A DNA stretch of 64,000 nt, taken from Fimbriiglobus ruber (GTDB lineage Bacteria > Planctomycetota > Planctomycetia > Gemmatales > Gemmataceae). The position numbers were made by a program, and so were the translations under genes. Positions 4,959 to 45,983 of the stretch are shown in pieces. The DNA is taken from assembly GCF_002197845.1 (NCBI RefSeq), contig NZ_NIDE01000014.1:1550001-1614000 (forward strand), read 5' to 3'. The stretch's first letter is position 1. Each line of letters begins with the position of its first letter. Under the pieces are notes generated by a model, which did no database searches, was not told where the DNA came from, and was given only the letters and a program-made list of their open reading frames with translations.

Positions 4959-6218
4959 CTACGGCTCGATCGGGACAGTTTTCTGATTCTTCCGCTCACC
5001 CCGAATGACCTTCGTTCCCTCGCCGGTCAGCCGCAGGTACCAGTCCGACGGCAGCCCCTCGTACGTAGCGAAGCGGCCCGGCGTGGGGGGCGTGTTGCTG
5101 ACCTTGAGGATGGCTGTTCCCTCATCGACCTCGTCGAACATCGCGACGTAGGCCATGTCGATTCCGAGGTCAGCGGCGGCCGAAAACTGCTGCCAGAAAA
5201 ACTCGCCTTTCATCCGGGGCATCGTGTCCCGGGTCGCGGCCCGCCCTTTCAAATTCACCCACGAGAAGCCCGGGTAAATGACCGGGAGGTACGCCATGCC
5301 CGCCTTCTTCGCCGCTTCGAGGTCGTCTTTCCAGTAACCCGTGGCCGCGTATTTGCGCCCGTCGACCCGCTCGAAGTTGCCCACGTTCCACGGGCTGATG
5401 ACGTCGAACCGGCGGAAGACCTTGGCCCACGCGAGGTCTTTCTCCGTCCGCCACGCCCACTGGCATCCGCCGACGAGCGTCACGCCGTACTTGGGGTCGT
5501 TCTTGAAGAAGTCGATGACGCGGTTCGCCAGGTCCGGCCCGAAGCGGTCGCTGTAAAAGCCCCACACGAATAAGACCGGCTTGCCGTTGTGGCGGAGATA
5601 CCGGCTATCCCCCGTAACCTTCGCCTCGTCGACGAGGCGCTTCCAGTCGGCCGTCAGTGTGTCGAACAGCTTGTCCTTCGGGGCGTCGGTCAGGTCGTAG
5701 CAGAGGGCGTACGCGCGGCCCGTCTTGGCGGCCGCCGCCCGGACGTGGGTGAGCACTTGCTCGCCCGAGCGGTTGTTCAGGTCCACGAGGAACCGCTGGA
5801 GGAAGACGCCGTCGATGCCGTATTGTTCCATCCAGCGGAAGTGCCGGTCGACGGTCTTCGGGTTGGCGGAGCTGAACAGGTGGGCGGGCTTGCCGTCCGG
5901 GTACATGAAGCCGGGGGTGGCGTACTTTTCGTCGTCGTCGTACTCGGCCATGTCCGGCCACATCTCGAACGACAGCGACCCGGCTCCGATCATCCGCCCG
6001 TTCCGGCTCCAGTGCCGCCAGCCCTGTCGGGCCGGGTCGCCGGGACAGCGGAACCACCCTTGATACCCGCAGAGAACTTTGTGATGGAGCGTGGTCGCGT
6101 CGACGGGGGATTTGATGCGAGGGGGCGGCGCTTCTTCTGCGACCGCGGGAAGGGACGGCGCGGTGAAGGTAACAATCAAGACAATGGCGCACCCGAGGAT
6201 GCACACGTGCCGCGACAT
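4959..6218 (-). CDS. Exported glycoside hydrolase family 99/71-like protein
   Basis: 419-aa secreted protein with a signal peptide (CAIVLIVTFTAPSLPAVA). The mature domain begins VLCGYQGWFRCPGD, followed by EMWPDMAEYDDDEKYATPGF, WMEQYGIDGVFLQRF, a central HNGKPVLFVWGF and VISPWNVGNF. This arrangement is typical of the GH99-like, xylosidase/arabinosidase-annotated (beta/alpha)8 proteins common in planctomycetes. The substrate is not predictable; an alpha-linked polysaccharide is the family expectation. The ATG at 6218 starts the signal peptide; upstream in-frame codons look non-coding. It converges tail to tail with the DUF3352-like gene (4 bp apart). Confidence 0.72.
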   Translation of the reverse strand: MSRHVCILGCAIVLIVTFTAPSLPAVAEEAPPPRIKSPVDATTLHHKVLCGYQGWFRCPGDPARQGWRHWSRNGRMIGAGSLSFEMWPDMAEYDDDEKYATPGFMYPDGKPAHLFSSANPKTVDRHFRWMEQYGIDGVFLQRFLVDLNNRSGEQVLTHVRAAAAKTGRAYALCYDLTDAPKDKLFDTLTADWKRLVDEAKVTGDSRYLRHNGKPVLFVWGFYSDRFGPDLANRVIDFFKNDPKYGVTLVGGCQWAWRTEKDLAWAKVFRRFDVISPWNVGNFERVDGRKYAATGYWKDDLEAAKKAGMAYLPVIYPGFSWVNLKGRAATRDTMPRMKGEFFWQQFSAAADLGIDMAYVAMFDEVDEGTAILKVSNTPPTPGRFATYEGLPSDWYLRLTGEGTKVIRGERKNQKTVPIEP

Positions 6219-6240
6219 TGATGGGCCCTTGTATTGCCAA

Positions 6241-6337
6241 GGCGAGCGGGGGACGTTAGTCCCCTGATTCTGGGGACTACATCCCACAGAGGAGAGGATA
6301 GTCTTCAGAATCAGGGGACTAACGTCCCCCGCTCGCC
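6241..6337. repeat. 32-bp perfect inverted repeat
   Basis: Arms at 6241-6272 and 6306-6337 are perfect reverse complements separated by 33 bases. It sits between the desaturase and GH99-like genes, both on the minus strand. It could fold as a long hairpin that ends the desaturase transcript, or be a copy of a mobile palindromic element. No target duplication was found at its ends. Confidence 0.85.
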
Positions 6338-6384
6338 TGTTGCGACATCGAGCGGAACGAAATGGGTCTGAATCGCTCGCCCTC

Positions 6385-7314
6385 TCACGCCGCTTTTTCC
6401 GCGTCCTTCGATTTGTATCCCGCGACCTTGATCGGCACCACCTGTTTCGCCAGCCCGACGACTTCCAGCATGCGGATGAACGTATACGTGAGGTCGATTT
6501 CCCACCAGCGGTGGCCGTGGGCGGCGCTGCGCGGGGCGGCGTGGTGGTTGTTGTGCCAGCCCTCGCCGTTCGTCAGCGCGGCCACGACCCAGTTGTTCCG
6601 GCTCCGGTCGGACGTCTCGTAGTTGCGGTAGCCCCAGCGGTGCGACGCCGAGTTCACCAGCCAGGTGATGTGCCACACGTACACGGTGCGGACCACGATG
6701 CCCCACGCGAACGCCTGAGCGGTGATTTGCACCGCGTCCTCGAGTTCGCCCGTGACCGCCCAGCCGATCACGAACGCCCCGACCAGGATGGCCGCGAGGT
6801 GGGCCAGGTAAATCTTCGCCCAGCGGTTCTTCTTGTGCAGCCACCGCATGAACCGATCGGTGAGTAGGTCCGGGACGTACTTTTCGTACGGGCCGAAGCC
6901 CTTGAACCGCTTGTCTTCAGTGTAAATCCAGCCCATGTGGCCCCAGTAGAAGTGGTCGACCGGGCTGTGCGGGTCGCCTTCCTCGTCGCTCGTCTGGTGG
7001 TGCATCCGGTGCGTGGCCACCCACTTGAGCGGCGGCCCTTCGAGGCTGCAGATGCCGCAGACGACGAAGATCTTTTCCAGCCACCCCGGAACCTGGAGCG
7101 ACCGGTGCGTGAGCAGCCGGTGGTAGCCGAGGTTGATCCCGATGGAGCCGAAGACCGCGTTCCCGATCAGAAGGATCGGAATGCCCCACCACGTAAAGAA
7201 ATAGGGCACGAAGGCGAGGGGCACCAGCGCGTGGAAGGCGATCAGGACGCCGACGTATACCGGGAGAATCTTCGGCCGAACGACGGGCTGGACCGCGACT
7301 GCGGACTGGATCAT
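6385..7314 (-). CDS. Acyl-CoA/fatty acid desaturase
   Basis: 309-aa integral membrane diiron enzyme expected to introduce a cis double bond (delta-9 type) into saturated acyl chains. The three histidine boxes are HRLLTH (residues 65-70), HRMHH (102-106) and HNNHH (254-258). They are separated by two hydrophobic hairpins (about residues 17-60 and 170-215), the standard topology of stearoyl-CoA desaturase-like proteins. Length is normal. Start at the ATG at 7314. It lies upstream of the GH99-like gene with an inverted repeat between them, so co-transcription is doubtful. Confidence 0.92.
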   Translation of the reverse strand: MIQSAVAVQPVVRPKILPVYVGVLIAFHALVPLAFVPYFFTWWGIPILLIGNAVFGSIGINLGYHRLLTHRSLQVPGWLEKIFVVCGICSLEGPPLKWVATHRMHHQTSDEEGDPHSPVDHFYWGHMGWIYTEDKRFKGFGPYEKYVPDLLTDRFMRWLHKKNRWAKIYLAHLAAILVGAFVIGWAVTGELEDAVQITAQAFAWGIVVRTVYVWHITWLVNSASHRWGYRNYETSDRSRNNWVVAALTNGEGWHNNHHAAPRSAAHGHRWWEIDLTYTFIRMLEVVGLAKQVVPIKVAGYKSKDAEKAA

Positions 7315-7506
7315 TCGCGGCCTTTCCTGTGTAAAAACGAATCGACCGTGGTAACCGTCCGCACGGCTCGATCGCGAGTGCGCGGTATTAGAAGATTAGA
7401 AAAGAACGCATTTCTTGCAATACGAAGTTGTCGGGCGAGGGTGAGAACGCCGGCGGGCGGCGCCCCCCCCGGCGCCGCCCACCCGAGAGCGGTCTCGGCC
7501 CACGCT

Positions 7507-9795
7507 TTACCCGACGTTCAGGCTCGACGCGCCGCCGAACGGGGCGAGCGTCACGTTGACGTCCGGGTCGGTCGGGTTCGCCGCGAGGTTCTTGCCGGTG
7601 TAGACGTACACCGTCCCCCCGCTGCTGACGACGATGTCCCCCTTGCCGTCCCCGTCCACGTCCTTGACCGTGATTTGGGTTCCGTTCCGGCTCGTCGTAT
7701 CGTTGTTCACGAAGAAGTCCGCGAGCTGGGACGCGTTCGCCCCCTGGTTCGCCAGGATGCCGGTCCCGTCGAACACCTCGACCCGCGGGGCCCCGCCCGG
7801 GCCGGCCGCCGCGATGAGGTCGGCGTGGCCGTCGCCGTTGATGTCCCCGACCGCGACCACCGCGCCGTTCCGGAGGCTCGATTCGAAGGCGAAGAAGTCG
7901 GCCACCAACCGCTTCGGGGTCGACCCTGGGGTCAACGACGTCCCGTCGAAGATCGCGACCCGCGGCCCCCCGCCGGTGCCGGCCGCGACCACGAGGTCGG
8001 GCGTCCCGTCCCCGTTCAGGTCGCCGACCGCCACCCGCGTCCCCCCACGGAAGCTCGGGTCCGCGATTCCCATGAAGTCCGCCAGCACCTTGGGCGTGCC
8101 CGCAGCGGCGCCCGGGAGGAACGCGGAGATGTTCAGAATCTGGATGCGGGGGCCGCCGCCGGTGTCCGCGGCCACCACGATGTCCGCCTTGCCGTCGCCG
8201 TTGAAGTCCCCGGCCGCGATGTTCAGGCCGCCGGAGAACCCGTTCTCGAACACCTGGATGCCGCCCGGGACCAGCTCGGCCCCGGTCTTCCCGTCGTAAA
8301 CGTGGATCATCGCCGTCTCGCCCGGGCCGGTGGCCGTGACGAGGTCGGGAATGCCGTCGCCGTTGACGTCGGCCATGAGAACCCGCGTCCCGGTGGCCGA
8401 GCCCGTCGGGGCGACGGAGAGGCCGGACGTCTCGGTCAGCCCGCCCGACGTGTCGGTCGTGAAGTTGTACACGACCGCGCCGGACCCGGTCCCGGACCCG
8501 ATGGCGACCTGGGCTCCCGGGGCGATGCGGATGCCGATCGGCGTGATCGTGGCGGCCGACCCGTTCTTGATGGTGAACGTCTCGCGGGTCTGCGTGGTGG
8601 CCGTGTACCCGCTCGGCGGGGTGATGACGATCTCGTGCGTCCCGTCGGAGAGGCCGGCGATGGTGAACGACCCGTCGCCCATGATCCGTGGCGTCACGTC
8701 TTGCAATACGCCGTTGCCGAACAGGTCGACCTGGACGCGGACCGGCGTAATGTTCACCTCGCCGGGGTCCTGGACGCCGTTCCCGTTCAGGTCGTTGAAC
8801 AGGCTGCCGGACACCCACCCGGGGTACGAGAGGGTGAAGTTGGCGGTGCCCGTGCTGTTCGCGGCGACGGTCACGGACTGCGAGTTCGACCCGTCCGCGG
8901 TGTTGAAGGTCGTCCCCTGTTGGGCGGCGACGCTGACCGTATCGGTGCCGGTCGGGACGTTGGCGAAGTAGTACGTGCCGGTCGAGTTGGTCGTGGTCGT
9001 CAGCTCGTTACTCGTGCTGCCGTTCAGTTCGAGTGTCACGACCGCGCCGGCGACGGGGGTGAGCGTGGTCGCCCCGTTCGCGTTGACGACGCCGGTGATC
9101 GAGGTGGACGGCTTGAAGCCGAGGTTTTCGCCGGTCTCGGTGTTGCCGCCCTGGATCGTGACCGACATCGCCGCGGTGCTGGTCGGCGTGTAGTTGACCG
9201 GGGCGGCGAACGAGACGTGGTAGACGCCGTCCGGGAGCCCGCTAAAGCTGAAGGTTCCGTCGGCGGCCGTCGTGGTGGTGGACACCACGGTCCCGTTCGG
9301 CTGGGTGAGGCTGACCGCGATCCCGGCGATGCCCGGCTCGGTGGGGTCGAGGGAGCCGTTCCCGTTCAGGTCGGCGTAGGCGGTGCCGGTGATCTTGCCG
9401 TTCGGCAGCAGCCCGAGGTTGATGCCGCTGACGTCTTGCCCGGCGATGGTCACGGTCCGGGTGGTCGGCCCGACAGGCGTTGTGCTGGGCGTCGGGACGA
9501 CGGTCACGGTGTACGTGCCGTCGGGCAGGTTGGCGAACGAGAAGTTGCCGTTGGCGTCGGTCGTGGTCATGATGCTGGAGGCCGCCCCGGTCGCGCTGTT
9601 GGCGAGGGTGACGCTCACGTTCGCGAGTCCGGGCTCGCCCGCGTCCTGCACCAGGTTGCTGTTCTCGTCCGCGAAGATGGTCCCAGAGAGGGTCGAAGGC
9701 GTCGACCGGTCTTCGAGGTGCAGGAGTTCCGGCCGCGGGGACCGAACGGGGGTCTTGGGAGTCTTGTCCGAGTGTCGAGGTCCGAGCCGCGCCAT
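7507..9795 (-). CDS. Exported SdrD B-like / FG-GAP repeat surface protein
   Basis: 762-aa extracellular protein. The N-terminus carries the planctomycete motif ELLHLEDRSTPS (about residues 27-38) in place of a classical signal peptide. It is followed by SdrD/Cna-B-type beta-sandwich modules with Ca-binding loops (FADENSNLVQDAGEPG, YADLNGNGSLDPTEPG, FNDLNGNGVQDPGE). The C-terminal 300 residues contain FG-GAP/VCBS-like repeats (VNGDGIPDLV, FNGDGKADIV, LNGDGTPDLV, INGDGHADLI, VDGDGKGDIV) that probably form a Ca-stabilised propeller. The ATG at 9795 immediately precedes the basic segment before the LEDR motif. Adhesion or matrix function is inferred. Monocistronic. Confidence 0.82.
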   Translation of the reverse strand: MARLGPRHSDKTPKTPVRSPRPELLHLEDRSTPSTLSGTIFADENSNLVQDAGEPGLANVSVTLANSATGAASSIMTTTDANGNFSFANLPDGTYTVTVVPTPSTTPVGPTTRTVTIAGQDVSGINLGLLPNGKITGTAYADLNGNGSLDPTEPGIAGIAVSLTQPNGTVVSTTTTAADGTFSFSGLPDGVYHVSFAAPVNYTPTSTAAMSVTIQGGNTETGENLGFKPSTSITGVVNANGATTLTPVAGAVVTLELNGSTSNELTTTTNSTGTYYFANVPTGTDTVSVAAQQGTTFNTADGSNSQSVTVAANSTGTANFTLSYPGWVSGSLFNDLNGNGVQDPGEVNITPVRVQVDLFGNGVLQDVTPRIMGDGSFTIAGLSDGTHEIVITPPSGYTATTQTRETFTIKNGSAATITPIGIRIAPGAQVAIGSGTGSGAVVYNFTTDTSGGLTETSGLSVAPTGSATGTRVLMADVNGDGIPDLVTATGPGETAMIHVYDGKTGAELVPGGIQVFENGFSGGLNIAAGDFNGDGKADIVVAADTGGGPRIQILNISAFLPGAAAGTPKVLADFMGIADPSFRGGTRVAVGDLNGDGTPDLVVAAGTGGGPRVAIFDGTSLTPGSTPKRLVADFFAFESSLRNGAVVAVGDINGDGHADLIAAAGPGGAPRVEVFDGTGILANQGANASQLADFFVNNDTTSRNGTQITVKDVDGDGKGDIVVSSGGTVYVYTGKNLAANPTDPDVNVTLAPFGGASSLNVG

Positions 9796-10027
9796 GATCG
9801 CTCCTGCCGAAGGCACGAATATGTCGTCCACGCGACCGACCGGCCGCACGGTTACCGTCCGTGGAATGCCCTACAATCGTTACCATCGGCAGATTCGATG
9901 GGACGAATTTAGGGAATCGGTGAGAAATCTCTCAAGTTCGGGGGGTACAGAAAGTTAGAAAGTTGGTTAGTGCTTCTAAAAGAAGCTGACCAATTTGTGT
10001 CAGGGCTGGCTAATTTGGCAAAGTCTT

Positions 10028-12631
10028 CTAAATGGTCCACCAAGACGGCTGTTGGATTTCACAATCCGGCAGAGCCTTCCTGAGCGATTCGACGCCATGA
10101 TTAGTGATTTTATGATGATGTCTTGATATTAGACTATATAGTCTAGCTATCTTGTGTTCTCTTTTGCTCTCGGGTAGATAGAGAAGGCGAAGACTTTTAC
10201 CACGTCGGAGGTGGGCTAGTCCGGCATCTGTCAATTTATCACACTCGGGTAGAAAAAGACCAAATAGCTCGTCGAGCCGTCGGAAGTGTTTAAGCCCAGT
10301 GTCCTTCACCTGACTGCATCCTGTCAGGTGAAGGTTGCGCAAAAAAGGGTAGTTTCCGATCATGGCCAGCCAAGTGTCTGTCACCTGCTTACAATAACTC
10401 AGATTGAGGCTTATAATGTAATCTCTGAAAAGGTCTAATGTCGCAGTGGTCACATGCTGGCAACTACTAAGGCAGAGATCTTGAAGCTTGAGTCCTTGGA
10501 GGTGGGCGAGCCCGGCATCTGTCACCTGCCGGCAGCCGCCCAGATCGAGGTGGGTGAGTGCGGTGAGCCCTTGGAGGTGGGCGAGCCCGGCATCTGTCAC
10601 CTGCCGGCAGCCGCCCAGATCGAGGTGGGTGAGTGCGGTGAGCCCTTGGAGGTGGGCGAGCCCGGCATCTGTCACCTGCTGGCAGCCGCCCAGATCGAGG
10701 TGGGTGAGTGTGGTGAGCCCTTGGAGGTGGGCGAGCCCGGCATCTGTCACCTCCTGGCAGCCGTGCAGATCGAGGTGGGTGAGTGTGGTGAGCCCTTGGA
10801 GGTGGGCGAGCCCGGCATCTGTCACCTCCTGGCAGCCACCCAGATCGAGGTGGGTGAGTGCGGTGAGCCCTTGGAGGTGGGCGAGCCCGGCATCTGTCAC
10901 CTCCTGGCAGCCGTGCAGATCGAGGTAAGTGAGTATGGTAAGTCCTTGGAGATAGGCCAGACCTGCATCCGTGATCTGTTCGCAATACTTCAAGTCAAGG
11001 GCCGTGAGCGCGGTGAGCCCGCGGAGGTGGGCTAGTCCGGCGTTCGTCACCTGCCTGCAGTAGCGTAGTTCGAGGTGGGTGAGTGCGGTGAGGCCGCTGA
11101 GGTGTGTTAGCCCTGCAAGATCCGCATCGACAATGTCCTTTTCAAAGCTTAATCGGTATTCTTCGCCAGACCTGATAAGGACTTCGCTTGGGTTATTTGT
11201 GGCTTTCTTCCATCGTCGACCAGGATTTCCAGCTTGGCGTCGATACCATTCCCCTCGCGCCGTAATTTGCCATGCATGGGGCGCGGGAACAGAAATGGGC
11301 GCTGTAAAAGGCGCGGGAGCGGGCAGAGAATGAGACGTGGCAGCGACTGAGCGCATAGAGCCAGGAAGCGCCTCTCGCCATGCGTTCGCATTAGCTGGAC
11401 GGTCGCTGATTTCGTCCGATACGCTGTCTCCGATCAAGTCGATCAGGGTCTGGACAATTCCGTTCATTTGTAACCGCTTTTGCCAGTTCCCTTTGACCTC
11501 CGCGTCAAGTCGTCCTGTCAACAGCTGGTACGCGAGGATGCCTAAAGCATGGACATCGTCGCGAGGGTCGGATGGTTCGCCGCCGCGCTGTTGAGGGCTG
11601 GCGTAAATCAGACTGTACGATCCGCTGAGGAGCGAGGGAAGGACGCCCCCCTTTGTCGAGGGGAAACCGTGCCTCTCCTCGCGCATCAGGAATTGAACCG
11701 CGGTACCGCCGATGCCGAAATCGGTGACACGCGGGATGCCGTCGGCCAAGAGTACGTTGGCGGGCTTGAGGTCCCGGTGAACGATCGGCGGATGAATCTT
11801 GTGGCAATGGCCGACCGCGGCGGCGATCGTGTCCAGCATGAGAACGGCTCGATTGACGCGCTCGGCCGGCGGTAGCTTCGCCCATTCGAGCATCAGGTCG
11901 GCGAGCGTACCACCGGGGACGTATTCGTACATCAGCCACGGGGCGTCGCCGGAGAGATGGCATTCCAGCAGGGGGACGATATTCGGGTGCTCCCCGGCGT
12001 GCTGCATCACGCGGACGATCAGATCTTTCTCGTGCGTCACCAGGCGGGTGCGCGCGATCGGGTCGGTGCAAAACTTGACGGCCCGCTGCTCCGGCTTCCC
12101 GTCGCGCGTTTTCCAGGCGTGATTCGCCAGCCAGACTTCGCCGAACCCGCCGCCACCGAGCTTCCTCACGAGCCGCCAGTTGTCGACGCGACCGGGTACC
12201 CACTCGCCGGCCGCGAACCGGGGCGGCGTCTGCGGCAACAGCTTTACCACATCCTCTGGCGAGCGGATCGCGTACCCGTCTGGCAGTGTGGTGCCGGTGG
12301 GGTCGTCCTTGCGCATCAGTGATGCCCGGGCCGCGTCCGGGATGCCGGCGACCCATTGCGTGAGCAATTCCTTCTCGCGCGGCGGCAGTCGCCGGGCCGC
12401 GTCCGATGCCTCGACCGCCTGCTGCGCGGCCCGGATCGCGGCGTCGGCTTTCGCCACAATCGCTTCCTTCACCTCGTCTTCCAGCTTCTTCGCGGCCTTC
12501 TTGTCCTGGTACCGCTTGTAGGCGTCGGCTCCGATCGCGTAGAGGTAATTCCCGCCGGGGACGAACTCGAAGAGTCCGCCGATGCCCTGGTGAACGACCG
12601 CCTCGACGACGCATTTCATGAGGTCGTGCAT
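10028..12631 (-). CDS. Ser/Thr protein kinase with C-terminal leucine-rich repeats
   Basis: 867-aa soluble protein. Residues 1-145 are mostly helical and uncharacterised (GGLFEFVPGGNYLYAIGAD, then an Ala/Lys-rich helix). Residues 152-420 are a Hanks-type kinase: Gly-rich loop GGGGFGEVW (159-167), Lys186, HRDLKPAN with catalytic Asp287, and DFG at 304-306. From about 490 to 840 there is a run of roughly 13 leucine-rich repeats of the cysteine-containing GLAHLQGLTALTHLDLGGC type. No transmembrane segment, unlike most bacterial PknB-type kinases. The LRR array is encoded by nearly identical 75-bp units. It is divergent from the GIDE-domain gene. The partner recognised by the LRR is unknown. Confidence 0.9.
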   Translation of the reverse strand: MHDLMKCVVEAVVHQGIGGLFEFVPGGNYLYAIGADAYKRYQDKKAAKKLEDEVKEAIVAKADAAIRAAQQAVEASDAARRLPPREKELLTQWVAGIPDAARASLMRKDDPTGTTLPDGYAIRSPEDVVKLLPQTPPRFAAGEWVPGRVDNWRLVRKLGGGGFGEVWLANHAWKTRDGKPEQRAVKFCTDPIARTRLVTHEKDLIVRVMQHAGEHPNIVPLLECHLSGDAPWLMYEYVPGGTLADLMLEWAKLPPAERVNRAVLMLDTIAAAVGHCHKIHPPIVHRDLKPANVLLADGIPRVTDFGIGGTAVQFLMREERHGFPSTKGGVLPSLLSGSYSLIYASPQQRGGEPSDPRDDVHALGILAYQLLTGRLDAEVKGNWQKRLQMNGIVQTLIDLIGDSVSDEISDRPANANAWREALPGSMRSVAATSHSLPAPAPFTAPISVPAPHAWQITARGEWYRRQAGNPGRRWKKATNNPSEVLIRSGEEYRLSFEKDIVDADLAGLTHLSGLTALTHLELRYCRQVTNAGLAHLRGLTALTALDLKYCEQITDAGLAYLQGLTILTYLDLHGCQEVTDAGLAHLQGLTALTHLDLGGCQEVTDAGLAHLQGLTTLTHLDLHGCQEVTDAGLAHLQGLTTLTHLDLGGCQQVTDAGLAHLQGLTALTHLDLGGCRQVTDAGLAHLQGLTALTHLDLGGCRQVTDAGLAHLQGLKLQDLCLSSCQHVTTATLDLFRDYIISLNLSYCKQVTDTWLAMIGNYPFLRNLHLTGCSQVKDTGLKHFRRLDELFGLFLPECDKLTDAGLAHLRRGKSLRLLYLPESKREHKIARLYSLISRHHHKITNHGVESLRKALPDCEIQQPSWWTI
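10496..10945. repeat. Six 75-bp tandem repeats encoding LRR units
   Basis: Six consecutive 75-bp units starting at 10496, 10571, 10646, 10721, 10796 and 10871, differing at only a few positions; degenerate copies lie on both sides. Each encodes one 25-residue LRR of the kinase on the minus strand. The near identity implies recent expansion or homogenisation and possible copy-number variation. Confidence 0.95.
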
Positions 12632-12956: not shown

Positions 12957-15395
12957 ATGCTCGCCGCAAACGGATCACTCATCCCACTGATCTTCGTGCT
13001 GGTCATCTTCCTGATCGGCGGGGTTGTCTTTTGCATCCTCGCGTGGGTCATTTACCGCAGTCGACGGCGGATCGCCGCCATCGAGGGGACGGAAGCGTCG
13101 GACGTCGCCGACCTGGACGAGGGGTACGCCAAGGTCCGGGGTAAGGTCGTCGCCCTGGAAGACCTCCTCAAAAGCCCGCTGGCCGGTACCAGATGCGTTT
13201 ACTTCCACATCAAGATCGAGGAACAACGGACCCGCACGGTCACGGATTACAGTTCCGGTGGCAATAACTCGTTCGGCGGAATGACGCGGACGCGGACCGA
13301 GACGTACTGGGTCACGGTCCTCGACGACAAGCAGGCCGCCCGCTGCGGGATCGAAGACCGCACCGGACTCGCGCGGGTCGAACTGCTCGACGCCGAGCCC
13401 GAACTGAACCCGACGGCCCACACCCAGTCCGGCCTCTTTTCGAGCATCTCGCCCCGGGTGAAGCGGCGTCTGGAAGACATGTACGGGTATTCGACCAAGG
13501 GCTTCTTCTTCAACAAGACCGCCCGGTACAAGGAAACGGTCATCGAGGAAGGCGACAAGCTGTTCGTCATCGGCGACGTGGAACTGACGCGGAGCGGGAA
13601 GCCCTGCTTCGTGAGAGGGTCGCGACCCTTCATCGTGTCCGACAAGACCGAGGCGAAACTGCTCGCCGCCTACCAGCGGCGCGTCCTCTGGGGCAGCATC
13701 GGCGCGGTGGCGACCGTCGTACTCACGATCGCACTGGGCGCGGTCGTCGGCGTGGTCTTCGGCGGCGGGCGGGCGGGTCAACGACAGCAGGTCGCGCAGA
13801 ACGACCCGTTCAACCCGCCGGGCTTCGGCGGGTTCGCCGACCCCGGCGGGCAAGATCAGGGCGCCGCCATCAACCGAGCCTTCGTCGACCTGGTCTCCCC
13901 CGACCCGGGCACCCGCGAGCGTGCGGCTGACGCGCTGGCCCGGATGTCGCCCGACCCGAGCCGGCGATGGGAAGTCGTTGTGCGATTGAAAATGCTCCAG
14001 GTCGACCCCGACCCGGCGACGCGCGACGCCGTGCAACGGGCCCTGCGCGTGTGGGATACGCCGGCCGTGGCGGGCGGACCGAACCTGCCCCCGCTCCCTC
14101 CCCCCGACCCCCGGCCGCCCGTCGACCGGCCCGACCCGTTCGCGGGGCCCGGTCAAGACAGGCCGGAGCCGAATCGGGTCCGCCCCGGCGCACCGCGGCG
14201 CCGGGCCGAGGACGACAACCCGTTCAAGGAAGGCAACCACTACCAGCCGAGCAACGTCAAAGAATTACCGCCGGTCGCCGTGCCGTGGACCGCAGTCGCC
14301 GACCCGGCCGCGGGCACGTTCACCGGCGCGCCGACCGTCGGCCGGGGCGTGATCCCGATGGGATTCGGTCCGCCGGATGTGGTGTTCCCGCTGCTCCCGA
14401 GTGCCTTCGTCGCCGTTTATCCGGGTAACAAAGCCGCCAGGAAGCTAAACACCGACGGCCTATTTCAGGTGTACGACCTGCGGACGATGAAGGCGGCCGG
14501 CGGGCCGTTCCGGGCCAAAACGGCGCTCGGCGAACACTTCGTTCTGAGCCCGGACGGGGCCTACGCCGCCGGCCGCGTGGTCGGCGGCACGGTCAACACC
14601 GAGATCGAGGTGATCGCCACCGGCACCAGCCGGTCGGTCCGCCGGATCGAGGCGGGGCACGACCCGAAGGAGTTCGCCTTCCCGATCGGGTTCGTGAGTC
14701 CGACCCGCCTGCTCACGAAGACCCACGAGAACCAGTTGCCGGACTTCTCCGAACTGACGCACTACAAGGTGTGGGACGTGACGACCGGCGAGGAGGTCGC
14801 CCACTTCGCTTACGACGTGGTGTACAACTCGATGTTTTGCGGCGTGTCGTCCGGCGGCCGCTACCTGACCTTTTGGGACGCCAAGACGATTCGGGGCCAC
14901 CGGCTCGTCGTCTTCGACCTGACGACCGGGAAAGTCGTCGGCGACGTCATGCTCCAGCCCCGGTCCGAGCCGCACGGCTCGTCGACGGGCATGGCGTTCT
15001 CCCCGGACGGGAAAGAACTCGCCATCCTCTGGCGGATCAGCCGGAAAACCACGTCCTGGGGGAAGATCCTGGTCTACAACGCGACGACCGGCACCCGGAC
15101 GGCGGAACTGCCGGTCGGACAACTCGTGAAGAACATGGACTCGGTTTACAGCAACGGCGGCGCGCAGACCATCCAGTACACCCCGGACGGGTCGGGCTGG
15201 CTGATCTTCGGGCACCTCGTCGTGAACCGTAAGACGGGCGAGGTCGCCCGGCGAATCGGCCCCGAGCCGAAGTGGCAGGGCGAAGTCCTCCCCCGCCGGT
15301 TCGTCGGACCGAACTACCTGACGACGCTGGTCAAATCCGGGATCGATACCGGCTTGACGCTCGAACCCGCGACCGCTTCGGCCGACGGGTTCTGA
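12957..15395 (+). CDS. GIDE-domain membrane protein with C-terminal propeller-like region
   Basis: 812-aa protein. A first transmembrane helix (residues 7-32) is followed by a GIDE domain at about 58-225, the domain of mitochondrial MULAN/GIDE E3 ligases. It shows the pattern VRGKVVALEDLLKSPLAGTR, CVYFHIKIEEQ and VIEEGDKLFVIGDVEL. A second transmembrane helix lies at about 243-268. A Pro-rich linker and a long C-terminal region with WD40/PQQ-like repeats (VYDLRTMKAAGGP, KVWDVTTGEEVAHF, VVFDLTTGKVVGD, VYNATTGTRTAELP) follow. There is no RING finger, so ubiquitin ligase activity is not implied. The ATG at 12957 sits directly before the first helix. Confidence 0.75.
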   Translation: MLAANGSLIPLIFVLVIFLIGGVVFCILAWVIYRSRRRIAAIEGTEASDVADLDEGYAKVRGKVVALEDLLKSPLAGTRCVYFHIKIEEQRTRTVTDYSSGGNNSFGGMTRTRTETYWVTVLDDKQAARCGIEDRTGLARVELLDAEPELNPTAHTQSGLFSSISPRVKRRLEDMYGYSTKGFFFNKTARYKETVIEEGDKLFVIGDVELTRSGKPCFVRGSRPFIVSDKTEAKLLAAYQRRVLWGSIGAVATVVLTIALGAVVGVVFGGGRAGQRQQVAQNDPFNPPGFGGFADPGGQDQGAAINRAFVDLVSPDPGTRERAADALARMSPDPSRRWEVVVRLKMLQVDPDPATRDAVQRALRVWDTPAVAGGPNLPPLPPPDPRPPVDRPDPFAGPGQDRPEPNRVRPGAPRRRAEDDNPFKEGNHYQPSNVKELPPVAVPWTAVADPAAGTFTGAPTVGRGVIPMGFGPPDVVFPLLPSAFVAVYPGNKAARKLNTDGLFQVYDLRTMKAAGGPFRAKTALGEHFVLSPDGAYAAGRVVGGTVNTEIEVIATGTSRSVRRIEAGHDPKEFAFPIGFVSPTRLLTKTHENQLPDFSELTHYKVWDVTTGEEVAHFAYDVVYNSMFCGVSSGGRYLTFWDAKTIRGHRLVVFDLTTGKVVGDVMLQPRSEPHGSSTGMAFSPDGKELAILWRISRKTTSWGKILVYNATTGTRTAELPVGQLVKNMDSVYSNGGAQTIQYTPDGSGWLIFGHLVVNRKTGEVARRIGPEPKWQGEVLPRRFVGPNYLTTLVKSGIDTGLTLEPATASADGF

Positions 15396-28868: not shown

Positions 28869-29204
28869 CGCGGGAACTGATGGGCGATCTTTTGCAACGA
28901 GTGCGATGTCGAATTTCTGAGGCGAACCGACATCATTGCGCCCATATCGAAGTTGTTCCGACTCCGGCCGACCTCGGCGCAGTCGGCTAGATACCTCCTG
29001 GCAAAGGCGGAAGTGATGCTGTCGCTTTGAGATACTCCACGCGGGCAAGAATGAGCCCTTGTAGACAGGTTAGTCTATCCCATCCGTTTCCGGGTACTGC
29101 ACAGAACTTGGGCGATGGTCCAAGCGAAGCGAGGACCGTTGCTCCGTGGTTCACCGCCGGGTAGCATCAAATTGCTATCCATCCGTCCGCAAGTGGGAGA
29201 GGCG
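28869..29204. other. Intergenic region, no gene supported
   Basis: 336 bp between the phytochrome operon and the LRR protein gene. Nothing recognisable: no convincing terminator, RNA gene or repeat seen. Confidence 0.4.
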
Positions 29205-30674
29205 ATGTTAAGGACTCTGGCGTTCGCTCTGGCTGTGTCGGGGCTCTGTCTGTGTTCGCCCCTCCGGGCCGACGACGCCGAGGACAAGGCTGTCGCGTTC
29301 GTGAAGAAACTCGGCGGGAAGGTCACCCGCGACGAGTACGCACCTGGGAAACCGGTCACCGCCGTCAATCTGAGGTACACGGCGGTGACGGACGCGGGGC
29401 TGAAGGAGCTGACCGCGCTCACGAACCTCACAACGCTCGATCTGTCCTTGACGAACGTGACGAGCCCAGGGGTGGCGCGACTGGCCGCACTCAAACGCCT
29501 CACTACGCTCGACCTGTCGCACACGCCGGTGGCAGACATGGGGCTGAAGGAGTTAGCCGCCCTCAAGACTCTCACCTCGCTCAACCTGAACGGGACGAAG
29601 GTGTCGGACGCGGATCTGAAGGACTTGGCCGCGATTCCGAACCTCACGACGCTCAACCTGGACGGCATGATAGTGGCGGGTCTGGGGGGACTGAAGGATC
29701 TGGCCGCATTCAAGAACCTCACCTCGCTCAAACTGAGCCAAACGGGCATGACGGATACGGAGATCAAGGTGCTGACCGCCCTCCCGAATCTCGTGACCCT
29801 CGACCTGAGTCGCGCGAAGCTAACGGACGCGGGGATCAAAGAGCTGACCGCACTCAAACAGCTCACTTGGCTAAATCTGGACGGCACGAAGATGACGGAT
29901 GCGGGCCTGAAGGAACTGGCCCCGCTCAAACAGCTCACTTGGTTAAATCTGGACGGCACAGAGGTGACGGATGCGGGTCTGAAGGACTTGGCCGCACTCA
30001 AGAACCTCACCAAACTCAATCTCTCTTACACGCCGGTAACGGGCGCAGGTTTGAAGGATCTGGCCCCACTCCAGAAGCTCACCGAACTCAATCTCTCTTC
30101 CACGCCGGTGACGGATGCGGGCCTGAAGGAGCTGGCCCCGCTCAAACATCTCACCACACTCAATCTGTGGGGTACGAAGGTGACGGACGCGGTCCTAAAG
30201 GAACTGGCCCCGCTCCAGAACCTCACCACACTCGACCTAGGCAATACGAAGGTGACGGGCGCGGAACTCAAGGAACTGGCGGCATTCAAGAACCTCTCTA
30301 CACTCAACCTAAGCCAGGCGCAAGTAGCGGACGCGGGTCTGAAGGGACTGGCCACACTACCGAACCTCACTGCACTCGACCTGCAGCTCACGAAGGTGAC
30401 GGACGCGGGCCTGAAGGAACTGGCCCTACTCCAGAATCTCACCACACTCGACCTGACTCAGACGCAGGTGACGGACGCAGGCCTGAAGGAACTGGCGGCA
30501 CTCCAGAATCTCACCAAACTCGACCTGACCCAGACGCAGGTGACGGACGCAGGCCTGAAGGAACTGGCGGCACTCCAGAATCTCACCAAACTCAACCTGT
30601 TCTCCACGGAAGTAACGGACGCGGGGGTGAAGGAACTCCGGCAGGCACTCCCGAAGTGCCTGATTCGGAATTAA
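29205..30674 (+). CDS. Exported leucine-rich-repeat protein
   Basis: 489-aa protein with a signal peptide (LRTLAFALAVSGLCLCSPLRA). About 18 LRRs of 24 residues follow, with the consensus KVTDAGLKELAALKNLTTLD and little else. The repeats are encoded by 72-bp units, the last ones almost identical (for example 30470-30541 and the next copy). No kinase or anchor. The ATG at 29205 directly precedes the signal peptide, with GGGAGAGG upstream. It resembles the LRR protein at 53838 and the C-terminal part of the kinase at 10028. Probably a protein-protein interaction scaffold in the periplasm; partner unknown. Confidence 0.87.
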   Translation: MLRTLAFALAVSGLCLCSPLRADDAEDKAVAFVKKLGGKVTRDEYAPGKPVTAVNLRYTAVTDAGLKELTALTNLTTLDLSLTNVTSPGVARLAALKRLTTLDLSHTPVADMGLKELAALKTLTSLNLNGTKVSDADLKDLAAIPNLTTLNLDGMIVAGLGGLKDLAAFKNLTSLKLSQTGMTDTEIKVLTALPNLVTLDLSRAKLTDAGIKELTALKQLTWLNLDGTKMTDAGLKELAPLKQLTWLNLDGTEVTDAGLKDLAALKNLTKLNLSYTPVTGAGLKDLAPLQKLTELNLSSTPVTDAGLKELAPLKHLTTLNLWGTKVTDAVLKELAPLQNLTTLDLGNTKVTGAELKELAAFKNLSTLNLSQAQVADAGLKGLATLPNLTALDLQLTKVTDAGLKELALLQNLTTLDLTQTQVTDAGLKELAALQNLTKLDLTQTQVTDAGLKELAALQNLTKLNLFSTEVTDAGVKELRQALPKCLIRN

Positions 30675-44299: not shown

Positions 44300-44591
44300 G
44301 GTGATCCCCTCGCACGAACGGGGTTGTTACCACAGTCCGTCGATCATATCCCGGAGGCGGGGACGAAGGTATCAACAAAACGGCCGCCGCGGAGCCGCGG
44401 GCCGCTCATCTCGAATGGCTTCAGTGCCTCGATAAGTCCGGAACGTCCGCGGCCGGGGTCCGCACAGAAGGGCGCTTGGGAGGTGTTTTCGGTTCGGGCG
44501 AGGGTTTTATCGTTGCTGGCGGGGGGCCGTGGTTTTACATTCTTCCACGTCACGCCGATTCCCAACCTGCTCCGATCCGGGGTTCTGACAC

Positions 44592-45983
44592 ATGACCGCA
44601 CCCGCCGCGAACGACGTCCCGAAAGGGGGCGCGTTGCGACTGAAACTTTCCATCATGTTCTTTTTTCAGTTCTTTATCTGGGGTGCGTGGTTCGAACTCG
44701 GCTTCGACTACATTCCGAAACTCGGCTTCAACAACGACTGGCAGCTTCCGCTCATCTTCGGGGCGTTCAACGTCGGGGCCCTCGTCGCCTTGTTCTTCAG
44801 CACCCAGTTCGCGGACCGGAAGTTCGCGGCCGAGAAATTTCTCGCCCTGAGCCACCTCGTCGGCGGGTTGGCGATGATCGGGCTGTTCTACATCCGACGG
44901 GAACCGGGAGCCGAAAGCGCCCCGTTCTGGCCGTTCTTCCTGCTCATGCTGTTGCACTCCGTCTTTTACGTCCCGACGATCTCCATCACGAACTCCATCG
45001 CGTTCGCCAACCTGCGAAACCCGTCGCAGGATTTCGGGCCGGTTCGGTTGTGGGGGACGATCGGGTGGATTACCGCGTCGTGGCCGTTCATCTTCATCCT
45101 GGTCGACTGGGCGAAGGTGCCGGCGTTCGGGTCGACGGGGTTCGTCGATTGGCTCGGGAAGGCGTTGGGCAGCTCGCTGGCCGGTGAGCCGGCCATGGCA
45201 CTCAAGGCTTACATCTTCCTTCTGTCCGGTCTGGCGTCCCTCATGCTAGCGGCGTTCAGTTTGATCCTGCCGCACACGCCCCCCAAGCCGGCGACCTCGG
45301 ATGCGGATTCGCTCGCGTGGCTCAAGGCCATGAAACTCCTGCGGCACCCGTTCGTGCTCGTGCTGTTCCTGGTCACGTTCATCGACGCGGCCGTCCACCA
45401 GAGCTTCTTTTACTGGACGTTCACCTTCCTCGGTCCGAAGGCGGACGGCGGGGTGGTCGACATCCCGGCCAACTGGGTCGGCCCGGTCATGAAGATCGGG
45501 CAGATCGCCGAGATCGTGACCATGCTCTTCCTGGGTTACGTACTCAAGACGTTCGGCTGGCGGACCACGATGATCATTGGCGTCCTCGGCCACGCGGCAC
45601 GGTTCGCGGTGTTCGCGTACATGCCGGAACAGTACCCCGCCATCCTCATCAACGTCGTCCACGGCATCTGCTACGCGTTCTTCTTCGCCACCGTTTACAT
45701 TTTCGTGGACGAGTATTTCCCGAAAGACGTCCGCTCCAGTGCCCAGGGGTTGTTCAACGTCCTGATCCTGGGTATCGGGCCGTTCACGGCGAACTTCATG
45801 TGTGGCCGGCTGAATGGCATTTACACGGTCGACGGCGTACTCCAGTACCCGTCCCTGTTTAAATACTCGATGGGTGCGGCTCTACTCGGTGCGGTACTCT
45901 TGCTCCTGTTCTTCCACCCGAAGAAGAGCGTCGATCAGCCGAGTTTTTCCAAGGTCGAAGAAGACGCCCCGCCAGTTGCGTGA
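44592..45983 (+). CDS. MFS permease, nucleoside:H+ symporter type
   Basis: 463-aa integral membrane transporter with about 12 helices. The first helix region is LSIMFFFQFFIWGAWFELGF. The motif PTISITNSIAFANLRNPSQD followed by FGPVRLWGTIGWITASW is characteristic of the NHS/NupG nucleoside symporter group. The C-terminal tail is hydrophilic. Uptake of nucleosides would fit the nucleoside hydrolase gene 5 kb away, but they are not in one operon. Start at the ATG at 44592. Confidence 0.85.
   Translation: MTAPAANDVPKGGALRLKLSIMFFFQFFIWGAWFELGFDYIPKLGFNNDWQLPLIFGAFNVGALVALFFSTQFADRKFAAEKFLALSHLVGGLAMIGLFYIRREPGAESAPFWPFFLLMLLHSVFYVPTISITNSIAFANLRNPSQDFGPVRLWGTIGWITASWPFIFILVDWAKVPAFGSTGFVDWLGKALGSSLAGEPAMALKAYIFLLSGLASLMLAAFSLILPHTPPKPATSDADSLAWLKAMKLLRHPFVLVLFLVTFIDAAVHQSFFYWTFTFLGPKADGGVVDIPANWVGPVMKIGQIAEIVTMLFLGYVLKTFGWRTTMIIGVLGHAARFAVFAYMPEQYPAILINVVHGICYAFFFATVYIFVDEYFPKDVRSSAQGLFNVLILGIGPFTANFMCGRLNGIYTVDGVLQYPSLFKYSMGAALLGAVLLLLFFHPKKSVDQPSFSKVEEDAPPVA

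What the first reader, a model, noticed from the sequence alone, without database searches (positions are those of the whole stretch)
10028..12631. Cytosolic Ser/Thr kinase fused to a recently expanding LRR array
The kinase has all catalytic motifs but no transmembrane segment, an uncharacterised helical N-terminus, and about 13 LRRs of which six are encoded by nearly identical 75-bp units. Such sequence identity predicts slippage or gene conversion and hence variable ligand recognition, in the manner of immune or self/non-self receptors. That role is speculation.
Basis: partly seen in the sequence, partly recalled or inferred. Interest (0 to 1): 0.58.

Follow-up and report, generated by a model that had tools for sequence, protein, structure and literature searches.

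The report
Bacterial sensor kinase with copied repeats
A planctomycete gene encodes an intracellular signalling enzyme whose front half belongs to a family that keeps swapping its back-end module, and here that module is a stack of binding repeats, six of them recent DNA copies of one another; similar young repeats are common in these bacteria and nothing found shows an immune role.

Summary
ORF 10028-12631 (-) encodes 867 aa: helical N-terminal domain (NTD), Ser/Thr kinase with all catalytic residues, beta cap, 13 LRR motifs, no membrane segment. Six central 75-bp units are young copies: five differ by 1-6 nt (0-2 of ~20 synonymous sites), the sixth by 6-12. Outer units, and those of the closest full-length homologue (L049), are old. 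L049 also has 13 LRRs, so copying is shown and net expansion is not.

The NTD is no orphan. NTD+kinase is a Gemmataceae family (35 of 149 genomes searched, own included, E<=1e-60) with interchangeable tails (FGE-sulfatase, WD40, LRR, Sel1, others). Tail type changes at least 16 times on a 63-row tree; the window kinase's sister has an FGE tail. At a syntenic kinase-LRR locus of the wider family, kinases are 86-91% identical in three genomes while LRR parts are 44-61% identical and differ in length; another kinase-LRR there is conserved throughout.

Adjacent LRR units of >=90% identity also occur in 5 of 21 own-genome regions (window included) and 10 of 30 relatives' loci, mostly not kinases as far as checked; this block is the longest. 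Young differences look neutral. Best reading: cytosolic sensor kinase with a plastic LRR module; an immune role lacks specific support.

The parts
10028..12631 (-). whole gene, 867-aa NTD-kinase-cap-LRR protein
   Evidence: start aligned with the ATG starts of relatives
12197..12631 (-). N-terminal helical domain plus the conserved segment before the kinase (aa 1-145)
   Evidence: matched at E<=1e-8 in 37 of 102 genomes searched, own included
11366..12187 (-). Ser/Thr protein kinase domain (aa 149-422)
   Evidence: Pfam PF00069, invariant catalytic residues, model
11282..11365 (-). linker of low model confidence (aa 423-450)
   Evidence: pLDDT below 50 at 428-451
11099..11281 (-). beta cap before the LRRs (aa 451-511), conserved in many LRR-tailed relatives
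   Evidence: strands 452-455, 461-466, 483-486, 490-496; phmmer matches in relatives
10118..11083 (-). LRR array, 13 motifs (aa 517-838)
10484..10933 (-). homogenised block: six near-identical 75-bp units (aa 567-716)
10049..10483 (-). diverged C-terminal LRRs and end of the solenoid (aa 717-861)

Best explanation
It is a cytosolic Ser/Thr sensor kinase. Shown: a conserved helical NTD and a kinase with complete catalytic residues form a chassis family in Gemmataceae, on whose C-terminus different modules have been exchanged; in this member the module is a beta-capped LRR solenoid whose middle six repeats were recently copied from one another. Inferred: the LRR concave face binds a cytosolic protein or peptide; binding changes the spacing or oligomeric state set by the NTD, so that kinases phosphorylate each other and then a downstream target. 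Unequal exchange between 75-bp units (slippage or homologous recombination) replaces units and can change their number, so the binding surface drifts quickly while the kinase stays fixed. The drift is probably mostly a by-product of repeat DNA.
For: Chassis family: NTD+kinase matches at E<=1e-60 in 35 of 149 genomes searched, own included; only about 11 candidates per genome were scored, so this is a lower bound. Catalytic residues invariant in all 24 aligned sequences. NTD tied to kinases: of 11 NTD matches absent from the list that I fetched, 10 have the kinase in the same frame and the eleventh is a spurious weak match. Tail exchange: of 66 tails scanned, FGE-sulfatase 11, WD40 9, LRR_6 6, Sel1 4; by local phmmer 22 of 68 have cap/LRR tails; at least 16 changes of tail type on the tree (59 of 63 rows labelled), with P0001 beside an FGE-tailed sister (L014), then LRR-tailed L049, then L015 with another tail, these three nodes starred. 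Cytosolic: 0 of the 22 LRR-tailed members has a membrane-like segment in the tail (threshold 1.9), against at least 16 of all 68. Unit copying. Turnover at a fixed locus: kinase 86-91% with 0 gaps, LRR 44-61% with 29-112 gap columns, frames on both sides matching in order; control in the same three genomes: an NTD-kinase-LRR with kinase and LRR both 95-99% and no gaps.
Against: No ligand, substrate or activity is known; sensing is inferred from architecture. The NTD fold has no informative match, so an oligomerisation role is a guess. The syntenic trio has a kinase only 48% identical to this one and a different N-terminus, so it speaks for the wider family, not this gene; its control locus is also slower overall (kinase 95-99%). 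None of the fetched NTD-kinase relatives has adjacent units of 88% identity or more (195 loci of all sorts scanned; the hits were own-genome LRR loci and one unrelated 60-bp case), so young blocks are not usual in this family. LRR number equals that of L049, so no count change is shown here. The unit number rests on one assembly; the longest exact repeat is 111 bp, which short reads could mis-assemble.
Confidence: 0.62

Rival explanations
1. Plastic recognition receptor: the kinase is an intracellular immune or self/non-self receptor, and unit exchange is selected because it makes new specificities, as described for fungal NLRs with highly conserved repeats.
For: FGE (there FGS) tails have been proposed as invader sensors, and LRR and WD repeats are named there as recognition platforms of STAND proteins (PMC8195603 passages). 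Species-level turnover of an LRR array on a conserved kinase. The block resembles the fungal class of highly conserved repeats (over 85% identity over at least 100 aa; PMC4986451 passages): mean amino-acid identity of the six units is 87.7%, minimum 76%, over 150 aa.
Against: Equally young adjacent units occur in LRR frames without a kinase, among them ones with apparent signal sequences and one that reads as a Roco GTPase, and in 10 of 30 relatives' LRR loci. Replacement:silent 6:2 is near the neutral ratio. No STAND domain or other effector among Pfam hits; the two flanking genes show no defence-type domain; PADLOC and NCBIfam give only kinase-type and internalin-type hits, those with cut-offs below them. 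No population data.
Confidence: 0.13
2. The LRR tail is a constitutive targeting or substrate-docking arm, not a ligand sensor; the kinase is regulated by the NTD or not at all, and unit copying is neutral.
For: Many LRRs are plain docking surfaces (established knowledge, recalled); a related NTD-kinase-LRR is nearly unchanged across three genomes, as expected for a fixed partner; neutral-like differences.
Against: Exchange of the tail for FGE, WD40 or Sel1 modules fits varied inputs at least as well as varied targets; turnover at the trio locus does not fit a fixed partner.
Confidence: 0.2
3. Young composite or decaying gene: a C-terminal part of foreign composition was joined to a resident kinase and has little function.
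For: GC3 falls from 0.78-0.90 (aa 1-320) to 0.38-0.55 (aa 401-520) and 0.28-0.57 (aa 721-867), with the array at 0.70-0.80.
Against: L049 aligns along the whole length including cap and LRRs (52% over 877 columns), so the layout is old; the frame is intact, and pairs with the old units 517 and 542 keep Nd/N (0.12-0.27) under Sd/S (0.34-0.78); L049 shows a milder GC3 fall.
Confidence: 0.05

Closest known systems
Multidomain Ser/Thr kinases of Planctomycetota (PMC11032199; passages read)
   Same: Gemmataceae kinases with C-terminal WD40, TPR or sulfatase-modifying-enzyme (FGE) domains; 98-140 STKs per Gemmataceae proteome there, 150 Pkinase matches (fragments included) here
   Different: The words leucine and LRR do not occur in that paper's main text; it sees no sign that similar architectures form highly supported clades and places FGE mostly on membrane-spanning kinases, whereas here a shared NTD+kinase defines one family across tail types and the LRR-tailed members look cytosolic
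Highly-repetitive (young) WD40 proteins of bacteria (PMC5587647; passages read)
   Same: About 20% of prokaryotic WD40 proteins put down to recent or young repeat duplication; enriched in Planctomycetes; many fused to kinases
   Different: Beta-propellers, not LRRs
Fungal NLRs with highly conserved repeats (PMC4986451; passages read)
   Different: STAND NTPase core and no LRR repeats; there repeat-number polymorphism among isolates and diversifying selection are reported, here neither is shown
CC-LRR / GL-LRR repeats (PMC2244805; passages read)
   Same: Repeats of this general type are reported from Gemmata
   Different: Often tied to F-box domains there; here fused behind a kinase
Plant LRR receptor-like kinases (recalled, from no call)
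   Same: LRR plus kinase in one chain
   Different: LRR is C-terminal here, with no membrane span

Membership tests
Planctomycetota multidomain Ser/Thr kinase | Pkinase domain with complete catalytic residues | tested here: met
Planctomycetota multidomain Ser/Thr kinase | accessory repeat or sensor domain at the C-terminus | tested here: met
   LRR
NTD-kinase chassis family (defined here) | conserved NTD in the same frame as the kinase | tested here: met
CC-LRR subfamily | Cys-containing LRR consensus | tested here: inconclusive
   25-residue units with Cys at position 9; compared by eye with the published description, no profile run
Plant-type LRR receptor kinase | transmembrane segment between LRR and kinase | tested here: not met
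   best hydropathy mean 1.19
NLR/STAND receptor | NACHT or NB-ARC NTPase domain | tested here: not met
   no such family among the 12 Pfam hits at E<=1
MAD6 (MADS defence kinase) | NCBIfam equivalog score above cut-off | tested here: not met
   66.6 against 460 bits; the PADLOC mad6 model matches at 3.7e-31 on residues 148-374 only
PD-T4-6 defence kinases | specific similarity beyond the kinase domain | tested here: inconclusive
   matches shown (25 of 33 families) start at or inside the kinase and end at or shortly after it
DGR-diversified receptor | reverse transcriptase beside the gene | tested here: not met
   16 RVT_1 matches in the genome, none on contig C14; action from elsewhere in the genome is not excluded by this
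HeLo/MLKL-like kinase | N-terminal HeLo four-helix fold | tested here: inconclusive
   no informative structural match, which excludes nothing
Fungal-type NLR repeat evolution (works like) | repeat-number polymorphism among isolates | not testable with these tools
   no second isolate or reads; species-level variation in a relative only

The most novel reading that the evidence does not exclude
Gemmataceae carry a family of plug-in receptors: one conserved NTD-kinase signalling core onto which recognition modules are swapped, with LRR versions that renew their binding surface by exchange between near-identical units, a bacterial counterpart of fungal NLR repeat evolution that uses phosphorylation in place of a STAND switch.
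Probability: 0.14. Interest if true: 0.75.

Novelty: new variant of a known kind. Interest (0 to 1): 0.42.

Why it matters
It gives a tractable case of how a bacterial kinase may get new inputs: a conserved core, modular tails, and repeat arrays that turn over at the DNA level at one locus while another kinase-LRR locus in the same genomes stays put. Strain sequencing could tell whether fast LRR turnover in bacteria is selected, as reported for fungal receptors, or a neutral property of repeat DNA.

Tried and rejected
Rejected: (1) orphan N-terminus: it is a conserved domain. (2) NTD as a free-standing effector-associated adaptor: 10 of 11 extra NTD matches are fused to a kinase, the other is spurious. 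(3) Unit sharing between loci: no close copy elsewhere in the genome. (4) A DGR at the gene: no RVT_1 match on contig C14. (5) A known fold for the NTD: 0 of 6 Foldseek matches at E<=0.001, best VIA-align Z 2.6 among 39 chains; Pfam matches of the 14 members weak and scattered (best 0.0067), best PDB sequence match 0.0032 to a coiled-coil protein. (6) Shared gene order with L049: outside the kinase gene the matches are LRR regions, another kinase frame, antisense frames of the gene itself and three frames that all hit the same two places in the window, so no synteny is shown.

Weak points and errors: I read minus-strand loci on the wrong strand; those rows were redone and the wrong ones are not used. 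In one search the 'Nterm' boundary was misplaced (it ran into the kinase) and is not used. The 20 own-genome LRR regions were picked by hand from the matches listed, which was itself a cut list; the 30 loci scanned are those the tool returned, and three of the ten positive ones (L228, L237, L245) come from one gene cluster and one (L244) is the trio gene L249. The LRR counts are hits to simple motifs that miss diverged units. The 97 distinct frames remain of 114 after dropping frames under 150 bits and repeats of the same start; 68 have the NTD; two tails under 60 aa were left out of the Pfam scan (66 scanned); 62 of the 68 plus P0001 went into the tree. The label 'other' lumps unlike tails, so 16 changes is a lower bound; the tree is a quick one with several long branches. 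In one case (L018) the tail began after its membrane segment, so 16 of 68 is a lower bound. Tail names EVE-like, Hsp70-like, beta-helix and prenyltransferase-like, and Roco, FHA and signal sequences, are my reading of sequence from recalled motifs, not tool hits. I dropped an argument for gene conversion from incompatible site patterns because it depends on where the unit boundary is set. I did not scan the flanking genes against PADLOC.

Literature: five answered searches concerned planctomycete kinases, LRR or Gemmata(ceae) (one search found no paper) and two repeat evolution; none of the titles shown describes this NTD-kinase family or young LRR arrays on bacterial kinases. I saw passages only of PMC11032199, PMC2244805, PMC8195603, PMC4986451, PMC5587647 and PMC1262709; the last, of 2005, mentions one LRR-bearing kinase, in Pseudomonas aeruginosa.

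Full report
What is there. The minus-strand ORF 10028-12631 encodes 867 residues: a helical NTD (1-145), a Ser/Thr kinase (149-422), a linker of low model confidence, a small beta cap (451-511) and an LRR solenoid with 13 motifs (517-838). Catalytic residues are complete and invariant in all 24 aligned sequences, the window and 23 relatives. No membrane segment is predicted. The genome is 12.36 Mb in 20 contigs with 150 Pkinase matches, fragments included; the nearest paralogue reaches 36% identity. Contig lengths identify two members of its family as Zavarzinella formosa and Gemmata sp. IIL30, so the family is Gemmataceae by inference.

The repeats. Units at residues 567-667 differ by 1-6 of 75 nt, and the sixth (692) from them by 6-12; 517 and 542 differ from the six by 14-28. 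Among the first five, synonymous differences are 0-2 of about 20 sites; pairs with 517 or 542 give 0.34-0.78 per site. The variable sites among the five are 6 replacement and 2 silent (my count on the alignment) at about 55 and 20 sites, a neutral-like ratio; pairs with the old units have Nd/N 0.12-0.27. The array has no close copy elsewhere in the genome (next best outside the gene 79% over query bases 248-304), so the copying was local.

Homologue test. The closest full-length homologue is L049, from a Planctomycetia MAG contig, the same gene as G149:C890: 52% identity over 877 columns, a homologous cap, 13 LRRs, C-termini that end alike. Its in-register units are old (Sd/S 0.40-0.98 in ten pairs) and TRF finds no array in the gene. 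So the long array is probably ancestral to both; in the window gene its middle was recently rewritten by copying, with no evidence of net growth. More distant relatives share the layout (L035, L142, L143). Two same-genus genomes (86-87% complete) lack the NTD at 1e-8.

How unusual is it? Scanning adjacent units at periods 60-83, 5 of 21 own-genome regions (20 picked by hand plus the window) reach at least 90% identity; the four others carry the repeats in frames without a kinase motif, including short LRR proteins with apparent signal sequences and one that reads as a Roco GTPase. In nine relatives, 10 of 30 LRR loci do. The stretch here is the longest: a run of 309 windows at period 75 (about 458 bp), against 158 at period 69 for the next own-genome array and 95 at period 72 in relatives. 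Against generality within the family: among 195 other fetched loci, most of them relatives of the kinase, adjacent identity of 88% or more appeared only in own-genome LRR loci and in one unrelated 60-bp case.

The family. NTD+kinase matches at E<=1e-60 in 35 of 149 genomes and the NTD alone at 1e-8 in 37 of 102, own genome included both times; only about 11 candidates per genome were scored. Of 11 NTD matches absent from the list that I fetched, 10 are kinase fusions. Of 66 tails, Pfam finds FGE-sulfatase in 11, WD40 in 9, LRR_6 in 6, Sel1 in 4; 22 of 68 match cap/LRR exemplars by phmmer. None of those 22 has a membrane-like segment, against at least 16 of all 68. On a 63-row tree tail type changes at least 16 times among the 59 labelled rows; the window protein's sister L014 has an FGE tail, then come L049 (LRR) and L015 (another tail with a membrane-like segment), these nodes starred.

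Turnover at a fixed place. A wider-family kinase-LRR with a related cap (phmmer matches to the window cap in the two members tested, L185 and L186) lies at a syntenic locus in G081, G065 and G090: frames on both sides match in the same order. Kinases are 86-91% identical with no gaps, caps 53-78%, LRR parts 44-61% with 29-112 gap columns; motif hits are 11, 7 and 6; one of the three has adjacent 66-bp units at 97%. These kinases are 48% identical to the window's and have another N-terminus. In the same genomes the NTD-kinase-short-LRR proteins L024, L023 and L027 have kinase and LRR parts both 95-99% identical with no gaps; that locus is slower overall, but its LRR keeps pace with its kinase. 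So fast LRR turnover belongs to some loci, not to the architecture.

Mechanism. Shown: kinase chassis, tail exchange, unit copying. Inferred: the LRR binds a cytosolic partner and gates the kinase, with the NTD setting oligomeric state. An immune role is possible but has no specific support: the two flanking genes are an SdrD/FG-GAP-type protein and a GIDE-domain protein, Pfam shows no STAND domain, PADLOC gives only matches on or around the kinase among the 25 of 33 shown, NCBIfam nothing above cut-off, and the unit differences look neutral.

Known work. Planctomycetota STKs with WD40, TPR and FGE-type domains are described (PMC11032199, passages); young WD40 repeats in bacteria are described (PMC5587647, passages); FGS domains have been proposed as invader sensors (PMC8195603, passages); fungal NLR repeats with high internal identity and number polymorphism are described (PMC4986451, passages). 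The NTD-kinase family and the LRR case were not in the titles shown by my searches.

Noticed in passing
G000:C1:557502-561494, L200:1002-4995 (-): A protein that reads as LRR-Roc-COR (Roco, by eye) with some 20 LRRs, adjacent 69-bp units up to 100% identical.
   Followed up: partly
L255:4001-5347 and 5542-10518 (-) (G000:C17, about 1.415-1.4215 Mb): A 448-aa ORF at an RVT_1 match lies about 195 bp downstream, on the same strand, of a 1658-aa kinase-LRR with an apparent membrane span.
   Followed up: no
window 29054-30671 (+): LRR frame of 539 aa with an apparent signal sequence and 72-bp units; adjacent units up to 98.6% identical.
   Followed up: partly
window 10028-11500: GC3 drops from 0.78-0.90 in aa 1-320 to 0.28-0.57 in the stretches flanking the array; L049 shows a milder drop.
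   Followed up: partly
G000 contigs C6, C9, C17, C18, C20: Five RVT_1 matches with identical scores, three of them within 5 kb of a contig start: perhaps a multi-copy retroelement that broke the assembly.
   Followed up: no
G000:C12:11293-11778 and 44416-44901: Two kinase matches with identical score and frame length on a 45.6-kb contig, perhaps an end overlap or a duplication.
   Followed up: no
L265 (G000:C7:77000-79800, -): A diverged NTD followed by what reads as an FHA domain and then a kinase (FHA by eye).
   Followed up: no
window 12960-15395 (+): Divergent neighbour with a GIDE (E3 ubiquitin ligase) domain match, 38.1 bits over a 23.6 cut-off, in a bacterium.
   Followed up: no
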